From an uncultured Bacteroidales bacterium (GTDB lineage: Bacteria; Bacteroidota; Bacteroidia; Bacteroidales; Bacteroidaceae): 33,953 nucleotides of DNA. The stretch covers positions 1 to 33,953 of the forward strand of contig CALZJF010000026.1 of assembly GCA_945787885.1 (NCBI GenBank), read 5' to 3'. The position numbers and the translations under genes were made by a program. Numbering within the stretch: position 1 is the first letter of the stretch; each line of letters begins with the position of its first letter. Under the pieces are notes generated by a model. It was not told the origin of the DNA. It was given only the letters and a program-made list of their open reading frames with translations, and did not search any database. Positions 419 to 33,953 of the stretch are shown one piece after another.

Positions 419-438
419 AATTTTCTGATTCTACTAAT

Positions 439-627
439 GGTAGGTTCTATAAATTAGTTTTCAATGTAAGGCAGTGTTTCTGTTTTACTTGGATGTCTTC
501 ACGCCTCTCGCACCGTATCTTTTTGTCTTTCATTCAGTCACGTAGCCCGCTACGCTCCTTCGTGAAAAACAAAAACCTACGGCACGATAGTCGCAAATAC
601 ATCGCAAGCTAATTGATAGAACCTACC
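439..627 (+). mobile_element. MITE copy 1, 189-bp foldback element
   Basis: The terminal inverted repeats are GGTAGGTTCTATAAATTAG at 439-457 and its complement with one mismatch at 609-627. The flanking 4-bp direct duplication is TAAT (435-438 and 628-631). Inside, 492-532 and 563-603 are inverted copies of each other matching at about 30 of 41 positions, and the centre has the palindrome CGTAGC-CC-GCTACG (541-554), so most of the element can fold into one hairpin. It has no open frame. A second full copy, inverted, lies at 25542-25730, and the first 53 bp of a third lie at 33901-33953. It is non-autonomous, and no transposase is present in the window. Confidence 0.88.
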
Positions 628-681
628 TAATGTTTTTGACCAATAAACCAAAGTTATCTCGTTCAACTAAAGAGGATGCGG

Positions 682-25511: not shown

Positions 25512-25541
25512 AAACACTGCCTTCCCCTGAAAACCTATTTA
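25512..25541 (+). mobile_element. Left fragment of an older MITE relative
   Basis: These 30 bp match 28 of 30 positions of the right arm inside MITE copy 2 (25690-25719), including the core AACACTGCCTTCCCCTGAAA. They end with TTTA, the duplicated target. The missing end of this older element resumes on the other side of copy 2 at 25731-25745. Confidence 0.8.
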
Positions 25542-25730
25542 GGTAGGTTCTATAAATTAGCTTGCGATGTATTTGCGACTATCGTGCCGTAGGCTTTTGT
25601 TTTTCATGAGGGAGCGTAGCGGGCTACGTGACCGAATGAAAGACAAAAAGATACGGTGCGAGAGGCGTGAAGACATCCAAGTAAAGCAGAAACACTGCCT
25701 TCCCCTGAAAACTAATTTATAGAACCTACC
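25542..25730 (-). mobile_element. MITE copy 2, inserted between fucK and fucP
   Basis: This 189-bp element has the same length as copy 1 and is in the opposite orientation in the window. Its ends are GGTAGGTTCTATAAATTAG and the matching complement at 25712-25730, and the 4-bp target duplication is TTTA (25538-25541 and 25731-25734). The central palindrome and the imperfect hairpin arms are conserved. It reads CTTCCCCTG where copies 1 and 3 have the equivalent of CTTACATTG. It lies in the 369-bp gap between fucK and fucP and could affect transcription into fucP. Confidence 0.88.
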
Positions 25731-25745
25731 TTTACAGAACCTGCC
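25731..25745 (+). mobile_element. Right terminal fragment of the older MITE relative
   Basis: TTTACAGAACCTGCC aligns with the element terminus TTTATAGAACCTACC with two changes. Joined to 25512-25541 across one copy of TTTA, it restores an uninterrupted right end of an element, which shows that copy 2 inserted into a relative. Confidence 0.75.
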
Positions 25746-27519: not shown

Positions 27520-30500
27520 ATGAACACGCACAAACTGCTTCTTTCACTACTCTCCTGCTCCGCACTCACTGCGGCAGCACAGAACAAATCCGTCTATTCG
27601 CTCGATGCCTTCGGCCCTGACCTCATGGAACTCTTCGCAAAAGTAGAGGCGGAGGGGCGGAAATATCCTACCATCGAAGAACTGGAGGAAGTGGGAGTCC
27701 ACCAAATGGACCTCGCCTTCGTACGCTCACACGAACAGGTGCGCCCCATCCTCAGCAATGCTGACATGAACGCCGTAAACGGCGTGGTGCCCACCCGGAA
27801 ACTATGGATGAACATCCCCATCGGCATCGGAAAATATCAGGGCGGCTACCCCACCAGCAATTGGAGCGACGATCCTTACACGGGCTGGAACTATACCGCC
27901 GTCTTCGGCACGTGGAACCACGGGCTCTTCAGTGCGCCGGGCTGCGTGGTCGATGCTGCTCACCGCAATGGCACGGACATCTACAGCGGCATCAAGTTCT
28001 TCGAGAGCTGGACGCCGGGCTCCACGCCGGAGGGATGGCTGGCATTCATCAAGACCAAGGACAGCAAGGGCTACGATGGCTTCAAATACGTTCGGCCGCT
28101 GGTCAATGCCATGCGATTCTTCGGACACGACGGCCTGAACTACAACTTCGAGGCATCGGGATATGCTGACTCCGACGTGGTAAAATTCCATCAAGCCTGC
28201 TATAAGTATGCGAAGGAGATAGGATTTTCCAACTTCCACATCGGCATCTACACTCAGGCCTCCAGCCTCAACAGCGGCAACTGCGAGGCGCTGCTGGGCA
28301 AGAACGGCGTGAAGACTGCCGACGCCTTCCTCAACTATGTGGGCGGAAACTTCAACAGCGCCACGAACATGCGCAAGAGCATACAGGCAGCCGAGCAATA
28401 TTTCGGCAGCAGCGAGGGCGTATATCAGGGCGCGCTCCTCTCGGGCTTGGAGCGCGGCTGGACCAACTTCATCGAGAACGAAGACGCCAAGAAGATGGGC
28501 ATCGTGGTCTGGGGCGAGCATGGCGAGAGCCGTATCCACAGCTGGTGTCTGGGCGAGGACGGCATCGACTTCCAAGAGGCTTACCAGAGGCGGCAGGAAT
28601 ACTTCTTCAGCGGCGGCAACCGCAATGTGGCTGCACTGCCCAACTTCTGCCTCGACGTGCCTTGGCGCAATGAGTCGGACCTGAAGCGTTTCCACGGCCT
28701 GGCCAAGCTCGTGCCCGAACGCTCCACCGTGCAGCAGGATTTGCCCTTCAACACCTTCTTCAACATCGGCAACGGCGAACGCTATTACTATAAGGGAAAG
28801 GCCACGCTGGGCGGATGGTACAACATGGGCGCGCAAGACATCCTCCCCACGTATCGCTGGATGGTCTATAAGAAGGGGACTACGTTCGACGCGAACGGCC
28901 GAGTGGAGGGCACGGCGCTGGGCAACGAGGTGCCTGCACTGACGAATGCCGACGCCTACACGGGAGGTTCGTGCATCCGACTGGAGAATACGGCCGACGC
29001 CGACATCATCCTCTATCGCTGCGAGCTGACCGTAGGCGGAGCGAACCCCACAGCCACGCTGGCATGGAAGGTGCCGCAGACGGCGCAGGGCGTGGACGGA
29101 AAACTCACCATGCTGCTGCGCAAGCGGGGCGGCACTGACTGGATTGAAGTGCCCTTCGGGCGGGCTGAGGGCCATGCGTGGAATGCGGCTTCGATGCCCG
29201 TCGGCGAATTGCAGCAGGGCGATGTCATCGAATACATCGCGCTCCGGACTTCGGGCATCGTGAATGGTATGCTCGTAGGGCAGGTGGGCATCAGCGACGA
29301 CACGAAGCGCGCCCCCGCTGCCGTGACGAACCTCATCGCCGAGGTGAAGGAGGAGACGCAGCAAAGCCTCTCCGTGCGCCTCTGCTGGGACATCAATGCC
29401 ACGCCCTCGCTGCCGGACTTCGACATGACGCTCAATGCCGACGGAAACATTGACCATTATGAGATTCTCTATAAGAACGGCGAGAAAGGCCGAGTCAGCG
29501 AGGTGGCACGCACGACGAGCTGGGGAGCCTACGTGGGCAACATCCCCATGGCTGAAGATGAGAAGCCCTTCGTCGGCGTACGCGCTGCCAGCACCGACGG
29601 CTGCTCCTACAGCGACATCGAATGGGTGGAGATTCCGCGCGCCGCTGCTGCCGAACTGCCGGCAGGCAGCATCATGACGGACGACTATCCCGCCATCTAT
29701 CTCGACCTCAACGCCGAGGACACGGACGTTGCCCTGAAGGAACGCTGGGTGAAGAGCCTGACGGCGAAGAATGCTGACGAACCCTACACGTACACCAACA
29801 ACGTGGGTACGCCCTATATGCGCGACATTGCCGCCGGAATGTCGGACGACAAGGCAGACAAGACGAACTATCTGCTGGCTGAAGAGCCGCTGCGCGTGAC
29901 GCAGGGGCAGCAGTTGGTCTTCACCATCAATGTCTCGCCCAAGATGGCCGAACAGACGGTGCGCGCCTATGTGGATTGGGATGGCGACCATCGCTTCAAT
30001 GTCCACAACGATGAGCTGGCATGGCAGAGCGGCATATCGAACGACAAGAAGTCGAACACGGCGTTCAAGGCCACTACTACCTTCGGCTTCAACGTGCCTG
30101 CCGATGCGAAGCCCGGCCTCAGCCGCCTGCGCATAGCTACGGCCCATCCTTGGTTCCCCCACTCCGGCCCCACGGGCGGCATGCCTGCGGGATTCGCGCT
30201 GGATGTCCCCGTGGTCATCAGTGGTGACAATGCGCCCCGCGAGGCTGCCATCGACACTCACGACGCGGGCATTGCCGACGAACCGGAAGGCATGGTGCGC
30301 CCCGATGCCATCCATCCTGCCACGCCCATGGTCAGCCGTGCCGAAATCTGCGGCAAGCTCCTGAAGCTGGAGCATGTGGAGAAGGTCTGGGTGTACGCTG
30401 CCGACGGCCGTCTGGCACGCCATTCCGCAGCCTCCCCTCAGAGCCTCCCACTCGATGGCCTGGCATCGGGTGTCTATGTCGTGCGTATGCAGTGTGGCAG

Positions 30501-30534
30501 CATCATCCGCTCGCAGCAGCTGATTCTCCCATAA
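27520..30534 (+). CDS. Secreted GH85 endo-beta-N-acetylglucosaminidase with T9SS-type tail
   Basis: This 1004-aa protein begins with a Sec signal peptide (MNTHKLLLSLLSCSALTAAA). The catalytic domain (about 60-380) matches glycoside hydrolase family 85: GTWNHGLFSAPGCVVDAAHR, NGTDIYSGIKFFESW, and GLNYNFEASGY carrying the Asn209-x-Glu211 pair used for substrate-assisted cleavage. GH85 enzymes cut between the two GlcNAc residues of N-glycan cores. Beta-sandwich regions follow (about 430-720), then a GEVED-like domain (about 805-895, VRAYVDWDGDHRFN). The last ~70 residues end GVYVVRMQCGSIIRSQQLIL, resembling a T9SS sorting domain, so surface display or release is inferred. No SusC/SusD pair is nearby. 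Its position after fucP suggests a joint role in host-glycan use. Confidence 0.88.
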   Translation: MNTHKLLLSLLSCSALTAAAQNKSVYSLDAFGPDLMELFAKVEAEGRKYPTIEELEEVGVHQMDLAFVRSHEQVRPILSNADMNAVNGVVPTRKLWMNIPIGIGKYQGGYPTSNWSDDPYTGWNYTAVFGTWNHGLFSAPGCVVDAAHRNGTDIYSGIKFFESWTPGSTPEGWLAFIKTKDSKGYDGFKYVRPLVNAMRFFGHDGLNYNFEASGYADSDVVKFHQACYKYAKEIGFSNFHIGIYTQASSLNSGNCEALLGKNGVKTADAFLNYVGGNFNSATNMRKSIQAAEQYFGSSEGVYQGALLSGLERGWTNFIENEDAKKMGIVVWGEHGESRIHSWCLGEDGIDFQEAYQRRQEYFFSGGNRNVAALPNFCLDVPWRNESDLKRFHGLAKLVPERSTVQQDLPFNTFFNIGNGERYYYKGKATLGGWYNMGAQDILPTYRWMVYKKGTTFDANGRVEGTALGNEVPALTNADAYTGGSCIRLENTADADIILYRCELTVGGANPTATLAWKVPQTAQGVDGKLTMLLRKRGGTDWIEVPFGRAEGHAWNAASMPVGELQQGDVIEYIALRTSGIVNGMLVGQVGISDDTKRAPAAVTNLIAEVKEETQQSLSVRLCWDINATPSLPDFDMTLNADGNIDHYEILYKNGEKGRVSEVARTTSWGAYVGNIPMAEDEKPFVGVRAASTDGCSYSDIEWVEIPRAAAAELPAGSIMTDDYPAIYLDLNAEDTDVALKERWVKSLTAKNADEPYTYTNNVGTPYMRDIAAGMSDDKADKTNYLLAEEPLRVTQGQQLVFTINVSPKMAEQTVRAYVDWDGDHRFNVHNDELAWQSGISNDKKSNTAFKATTTFGFNVPADAKPGLSRLRIATAHPWFPHSGPTGGMPAGFALDVPVVISGDNAPREAAIDTHDAGIADEPEGMVRPDAIHPATPMVSRAEICGKLLKLEHVEKVWVYAADGRLARHSAASPQSLPLDGLASGVYVVRMQCGSIIRSQQLILP

Positions 30535-33900: not shown

Positions 33901-33953
33901 GGTAGATTCTATAAATTAGTTTTCAATGTAAGGCAGTGTTTCTGTTTTACTTG
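33901..33953 (+). mobile_element. MITE copy 3, cut by the window end
   Basis: The first 53 bp match copy 1 (439-491) at 52 of 53 positions, beginning GGTAGATTCTATAAATTAG. The preceding ATTA (33897-33900) is the expected 4-bp target duplication, but its partner lies outside the window. It is in the same orientation as copy 1. Confidence 0.85.

What the first reader, a model, noticed from the sequence alone, without database searches (positions are those of the whole stretch)
439..627. A 189-bp foldback MITE family with clean 4-bp target duplications
Two complete copies (439-627 and 25542-25730) have exactly the same length, 18/19-bp inverted ends GGTAGGTTCTATAAATTAG, different flanking duplications (TAAT and TTTA), and an almost element-long imperfect hairpin with a conserved central CGTAGC-CC-GCTACG. 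A third copy starts at 33901 after ATTA. The equal length, near-identical ends and intact duplications point to recent movement by a transposase supplied from elsewhere. Three copies in 34 kb is dense. The AT-rich 4-bp duplication may hint at the transposase family, but I do not assign one.
Basis: seen in the sequence. Interest (0 to 1): 0.75.

Follow-up and report, generated by a model that had tools for sequence, protein, structure and literature searches.

The report
Jumping DNA with a conserved fold
Short gene-less stretches of DNA have copied themselves some two hundred times into a gut bacterium's genome, and their middle part keeps the same one-strand hairpin fold in related elements across an order of gut bacteria, although its letters and the elements' ends have changed.

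Summary
In detail: two complete 189-bp elements (439-627, duplication TAAT; 25542-25730, TTTA) and a third cut off by the contig end at 33901. The genome holds 426 matching ends (about 213 elements; control 0), and 49 of 60 paired copies have an exact 4-bp duplication. Three in 34 kb is this genome's average. It is a MITE.

34 aligned elements from Bacteroidales share a ~122-nt hairpin core with strong pair-preserving change: 42 of 42 pairs have changes on both sides, 345 cells against 109 in shuffles. The fold belongs to one strand: G.U mispairs outnumber A.C 108 to 48 and, in other families, 98 to 27. A covariance model finds the core in 13 of 247 Bacteroidales genomes, own included, and in none of the other 295 of a phylum sample. 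The same core sits behind other ends: a TA-flanked family here and GAGYCTGTTTAAATTT ends with 3-bp duplications elsewhere.

No autonomous partner was found. An IS5-type transposase in trans is my inference; the fold's function is open. ERIC and NEMIS are the closest known kind.

The parts
439..627 (-). Copy 1, complete 189-bp element; folded strand (strand A) is the window's - strand
   Evidence: (core scores 91.9 bits on -, 26.8 on +)
435..438 (.). Left 4-bp target duplication TAAT of copy 1
628..631 (.). Right 4-bp target duplication TAAT of copy 1
439..457 (+). Terminal inverted repeat GGTAGGTTCTATAAATTAG
   Evidence: 18/19
609..627 (-). Terminal inverted repeat GGTAGGTTCTATCAATTAG (read on -)
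486..608 (-). Conserved hairpin core of copy 1
541..554 (.). Central palindrome CGTAGC-CC-GCTACG of copy 1 (inner helix of the core)
25542..25730 (+). Copy 2, complete 189-bp element; strand A is the + strand
25538..25541 (.). Left target duplication TTTA of copy 2
25731..25734 (.). Right target duplication TTTA of copy 2
25562..25683 (+). Conserved hairpin core of copy 2
   Evidence: 89.5 bits
33901..33953 (-). Copy 3, first 53 bp, cut off by the contig end (strand A inferred from its match to copy 1)

Best explanation
It is a recently active family of non-autonomous DNA transposons (MITEs), moved in trans by a DDE transposase that recognises the ~19-bp ends and makes 4-bp AT-rich target duplications. 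Movement is shown by duplications and an internal empty site; the trans-acting transposase is inferred. By analogy with related elements elsewhere in the order I think an IS5-type enzyme most likely, at about even odds. The ~122-nt interior is not filler: it is a long interrupted hairpin kept by selection on one strand in many Bacteroidales (shown by pair-preserving change and G.U bias). It acts as folded RNA or, less likely, single-stranded DNA. I think it most likely acts when an insertion is read through into a transcript, as an RNase-processed or stabilising stem-loop that makes insertions tolerable or helps the element persist, as in ERIC and NEMIS; this last step is inference.
For: 426 ends, control 0. 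4-bp duplications in 49 of 60 pairs. Internal empty site. Fold: 85.6% of cells paired, 42 of 42 pairs with changes on both sides, 345 such cells against 108.7 +/- 10.4 in shuffles and at most 105 in slid controls. Elements from other families: 39 of 42 pairs, 487 cells against 158.7 +/- 11.1 (an alignment fitted to the model). Consensus fold -36.7 kcal/mol on strand A, -16.8 on the other. With wobble-blind arm alignment, G.U against A.C is 108:48 in the aligned set (26 elements against 5), 98:27 in the other-family set (30 against 1; one per type 48:17, 14 against 1), and 43:6 in the second own family (8 elements against 0). Core in 13 of 247 Bacteroidales genomes, own included. IS5 link: G055 elements with GAGYCTGTTTAAATTT ends have 3-bp TAA/TTA duplications in 10 of 12. 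An IS5-type element (NF033580, 213.9 bits) in G276, whose MITEs carry GAGCCTGTTTAAATTT ends, has ends GAAACYGTYTSAAAA and duplication TAA, as I read the flanks (for the family).
Against: No autonomous element with these ends was found in what I examined. Own stretches gave 16 longer outer pairs (0.4-2.8 kb), all joining neighbouring elements as I read the positions; only one has matching flanks, and it is two complete elements with their own duplications around an ATPase-nuclease gene. In the complete genome G004 all 61 listed ends give no pair of 0.3-4 kb by eye; pairs of 5.0 and 6.9 kb were not examined. In the 83 loci one long pair has matching flanks (L281), enclosing DUF6029 and Omp28 genes, and is taken as chance. 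The own assembly lacks PF01609, PF13586 and PF13358 matches. The link from the 4-bp family to IS5 rests only on the shared core and a loose resemblance of ends. Strand A shows no preferred direction relative to flanking genes (7 with, 7 against), which speaks against a strong cis role in mRNAs. G292 elements show a 3-bp duplication in only 2 of 8. Orientation in the other-family set was chosen by the model, which itself credits G.U.
Confidence: 0.72

Rival explanations
1. Plain MITE: only the ends matter. The interior is a long inverted repeat whose arms are kept alike by DNA-level processes (template switching, cruciform repair), not by selection on a folded strand.
For: Both strands fold well; mobility needs only ends and a transposase; no gene-orientation bias.
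Against: Arm correction should favour perfect Watson-Crick arms and treat the strands alike. Instead G.U exceeds A.C on one strand in each correctly oriented set, and a 2x2 internal loop (G.A then R.G) is kept in 17 of 34 sequences, two standard pairs standing there in 9.
Confidence: 0.2
2. The folded strand is used as single-stranded DNA, for example as a hairpin recognised during replication or transposition, rather than as RNA.
For: Strand specificity and wobble tolerance fit ssDNA too; random direction to genes fits a role in the element's own movement; the core persists behind different ends.
Against: Target duplications and inverted ends fit ordinary double-strand DDE transposition; no HUH or tyrosine recombinase link is known to me, and none was searched for.
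Confidence: 0.2
3. A stationary regulatory or structural repeat (terminator, REP-like) rather than a mobile element.
For: Largely intergenic: 22 of 24 examined overlap no called gene by 40 bp or more.
Against: Sharp 4-bp duplications, internal empty site, and 98-100% identity of the 40 best-scored copies.
Confidence: 0.03

Closest known systems
ERIC (enterobacterial repetitive intergenic consensus)
   Same: Small, mostly intergenic MITE, stem-loop transcript, copy number varying widely between taxa (PMC10969869 and PMC2229807, passages).
   Different: 127 bp with TA at termini, in Enterobacteriaceae and Vibrionaceae; here 189 bp, 4-bp duplications, Bacteroidales. No sequence relation was tested directly.
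Correia / NEMIS elements of Neisseria
   Same: MITE whose transcribed stem-loop is processed by RNase III (passages).
   Different: TA at termini per the table of PMC2229807; different host group; pair-preserving change across an order was not described in the passages I saw.
Porphyromonas gingivalis MITEs (BrickBuilt, MITE239, MITEPgRS/464)
   Same: Same order; several have ends matching insertion sequences that the paper assigns to IS5, e.g. GAGACTGTTGCA (PMC4596501, passages), reminiscent of the GAGYCTGTTTAAATTT ends here.
   Different: No shared interior known; the core was not searched in P. gingivalis by name. Around 10-20 copies each against about 213 here.
IS5 family (NF033580 group)
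   Same: In G276 an IS5-type element has GAAACYGTYTSAAAA ends and a 3-bp TAA duplication, like the MITEs of that and related genera.
   Different: No such transposase found in the own assembly; own duplications are 4 bp. IS5 subgroups with 2-4 bp duplications are recalled, not looked up.

Membership tests
MITE (non-autonomous DNA transposon) | Short, no transposase ORF | tested here: met
   189 bp holds at most 63 codons; no ORF of 80 aa or more is listed inside
MITE (non-autonomous DNA transposon) | Terminal inverted repeats | tested here: met
   18/19 and 19/19
MITE (non-autonomous DNA transposon) | Target site duplication of fixed length | tested here: met
   4 bp in 49 of 60; 5 bp in 0 of 60
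MITE (non-autonomous DNA transposon) | Autonomous relative with the same ends | tested here: not met
   None recognised in about 0.52 of 2.70 Mb of own sequence, in G004's listed ends, or in the loci. Not always found for MITEs; the draft breaks at these repeats (16 of 40 ends of 20 small contigs)
IS5 family-mobilised MITE | IS5-type transposase in the same genome | tested here: not met
   Own genome: 0 for PF01609 and PF13586. G276, G196, G055 and G032 each have one PF13586 match
IS5 family-mobilised MITE | Ends and duplication length like a resident IS5 element | tested here: inconclusive
   Similar, not identical, in G276; not testable in the own genome
ERIC / NEMIS-like structured MITE | Conserved stem-loop of the transcript | tested here: met
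   Fold with pair-preserving change; transcription itself not tested
ERIC / NEMIS-like structured MITE | TA at the termini | tested here: not met
   4-bp AT-rich duplications in this family; TA does flank the second own family, 7 of 9 pairs
Any Rfam family | Match to a covariance model | tested here: not met
   0 at gathering in the window; 0 at E up to 1 in five loci

The most novel reading that the evidence does not exclude
The ~122-nt core is a mobile functional RNA module of Bacteroidales that is the true unit of selection. It has kept its fold across about ten families while sitting behind different ends (4-bp, TA and 3-bp duplications), so it either swaps ends and transposases or gives the elements that carry it an advantage with any transposase.
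Probability: 0.3. Interest if true: 0.78.

Novelty: new variant of a known kind. Interest (0 to 1): 0.56.

Why it matters
MITE interiors are often thought of as leftover filler (my view of the field). Here the interior has a fold with strong pair-preserving change, specific to one strand and shared by members of an order of gut bacteria, in a family that reaches about 200 copies in one genome. That makes testable whether miniature transposons can depend on a folded RNA. It also gives a covariance model for annotating intergenic repeats in Bacteroidales, and one reason why such drafts break: 16 of the 40 ends of the 20 smallest contigs here lie within 250 bp of an element end.

Tried and rejected
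Partner transposase. IS1380 (NF033539) was tried because of a recalled likeness to ISEcp1 ends; IS1380 elements in the genus end in CCTTAATTCCGCA or near variants, so it was rejected. Ends near 30 PF01609 loci did not match. A 2.7-kb pair with TTTA flanks in L281 holds DUF6029 and Omp28 genes and has a poor left end; taken as chance. L222 (2.1-kb pair, no duplication) holds three ORFs without a Pfam match, and L302 (1.5-kb pair, no duplication) lies across two longer ORFs; neither was followed further. PF13358 (IS630) was absent from the own genome. Phage and plasmid collections: no match to the element; viral contigs: no match to its ends; a looser pattern gave 3 viral contigs, none with a duplicated pair.

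A mistake corrected: the other-family set was read on the + strand of unoriented loci and gave G.U 44 to A.C 41. One search repeats it on the strands given (98:27). One search has the same fault; I used its end types as leads and took duplications.

Rows dropped: of 62 elements of 170-200 bp, 36 were kept below 85% identity. Of these I left out five from alignment A1 (L083, L122, L127, L144, L231: chimeric, divergent or with an insertion; L127 shows no clear core) and added three (L256, L292, L294), giving 34. In one search the other-family set was 36 of the 45 matches; nine weak or partial ones were left out.

Full report
What is there. The window is the whole of contig C26 of a 2.70-Mb, 96-contig draft genome. 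It lies in the same genus as a genome, G032, whose 179,242-base contig has the same length, and the same 188-bp element with the same flanks, as a Prevotellamassilia timonensis An873 record. Two complete 189-bp elements and the first 53 bp of a third are present as described. Genome-wide there are 426 ends at up to 3 mismatches, none for the reversed control, so about 213 elements. The window's three are average, not dense.

It moves. Among 60 paired elements in the stretches and loci I held, 43 are exactly 189 bp; others are 61-105, 186-203 and 258 bp. The 4-bp flanks are identical in 49 of 60 against a shuffled mean of 4.7, and 5-bp flanks in none. Targets are AT-rich (TTAA, TAAA, TTTA and so on). 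A 189-bp copy at C1:57260-57448 sits inside an older element. Taking it and one AAAA away leaves a 191-bp element that aligns from end to end with a copy on C3: an internal empty site. Of 24 elements examined, 22 overlap no called gene by 40 bp or more, and among 14 between co-directional genes strand A runs with the genes in 7 and against in 7 (genes called by a simple longest-ORF rule).

Who moves it. Not shown. The own assembly has no PF01609, PF13586 or PF13358 match and only a 47-aa IS1380 fragment at a contig end; other transposase families were not searched. In the held own stretches, ends 0.3-3.5 kb apart belong to neighbouring elements (16 pairs). In the complete genome G004 the 61 listed ends give no pair of 0.3-4 kb, judged by eye. 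Because this draft breaks at the repeats, a multi-copy transposon could be missing from it. Elsewhere in the order the same core lies between ends such as GAGYCTGTTTAAATTT with 3-bp TAA/TTA duplications (10 of 12 in G055). In G276 an IS5-type transposase gene (NF033580) sits between GAAACYGTYTSAAAA ends with duplication TAA. From this I infer, at about even odds, an IS5-type enzyme for the order and hence for this family.

The interior. Of 61 genomes searched (own, 36 of the same genus, 24 of other genera of the order) 14 match the element at E up to 0.001, all in the own genus, and 13 of 58 genus genomes, own included, carry exact GGTRGGTTCTATAAATT. A pattern of this length in 257 Gb should also give some 15 chance hits (my estimate), and records from other phyla in the list may be such. 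Elements in these loci share an internal architecture. On an alignment of 34 diverse cores a 42-pair structure has 85.6% of cells paired, changes on both sides in all 42 pairs and in 345 cells; shuffles give 108.7 +/- 10.4, slid controls at most 105. In 42 further distinct sequences found by the model in genomes of other families, 487 cells show it against 158.7 (this alignment was fitted to the model, so it leans towards it). The structure was partly chosen on the same alignment, which favours it over the slid versions, and related sequences inflate all such counts.

One strand. The consensus folds at -36.7 kcal/mol on strand A and -16.8 on the other. The same window copy scores 91.9 bits on strand A and 26.8 on the other. 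Aligning the two arms with no credit for wobble, G.U exceeds A.C 108 to 48 in the 34 cores, where orientation was set by sequence similarity, and 98 to 27 in the other-family set, where orientation was set by the model. The second own family gives 43 to 6. A tandem G.A / R.G internal loop is kept in 17 of 34, and two standard pairs stand there in 9. These points argue for selection on a single-stranded form of strand A.

Same core, different ends. In this genome a second family begins AGTAGGTAATGAAAATTA, is flanked by TA on both sides in 7 of 9 pairs and carries the same core. Its end is 14 of 19 like the first by my count, so the ends may be related by descent. G292 has GAAGTGATTTAAACTT ends with no clear duplication (2 of 8 with 3 bp). 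The core therefore looks older than any one end type.

Distribution. The model finds the core in 13 of 247 genomes drawn from the order, own included (12 of 174 genera, ten family labels). In a phylum sample of 296 only the own genome matched. Filters were strict, so these are lower bounds.

Known or new. No Rfam family matches. Reviews describe ERIC, Correia/NEMIS, CIR and other MITEs with stem-loop transcripts, some acting on mRNA decay (passages of PMC10969869 and PMC2229807). P. gingivalis has MITEs with IS5-like ends (passages of PMC4596501). Searches for the ends as text, for MITE with Bacteroidales, Bacteroidetes or Prevotella, for Prevotellamassilia with transposable elements, and for structured RNA with Bacteroidales gave, in their listings, no description of this family; only open-licence papers are held. 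I call it a new variant of a known kind.

Noticed in passing
L062:17087-17470 (C1); C3:25292-25483 and others: Second MITE family in the same genome: ends AGTAGGTAATGAAAATTA, TA flanks, same hairpin core; 43 ends at up to 4 mismatches in about 0.52 Mb.
   Followed up: partly
L064:4324-6316 (C1:84324-86316): A 553-aa ORF with AAA-ATPase_like and PDDEXK_9 domains lies between a 61-bp and a 189-bp element; the outer flanks are both TAAA, but so are each element's own duplications. Probably chance; a gene-carrying unit is not excluded.
   Followed up: partly
C1:78554-78592 (L063): A 39-bp near-palindrome with GGCGTGTTCTATAAAT / GGAGTGTTCTATAGAT ends, perhaps a minimal end-to-end derivative.
   Followed up: no
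L211:2049-2444 (G004): Three same-direction copies of a GGGGTGTTCTATAATT end spaced 197-198 bp, each after TAAT: a tandem array of element-length units.
   Followed up: no
L158:1-200 (C86): IS1380 transposase fragment at the very start of the contig.
   Followed up: partly
window 27520-30534: 1004-aa ORF with a GH85-like domain and a GEVED domain, downstream of the MFS transporter ORF that follows copy 2.
   Followed up: no
L281:4531-7226: DUF6029 and Omp28 genes lie between a weak end and a true end with matching TTTA flanks; probably chance, but a gene-carrying unit is not excluded.
   Followed up: partly
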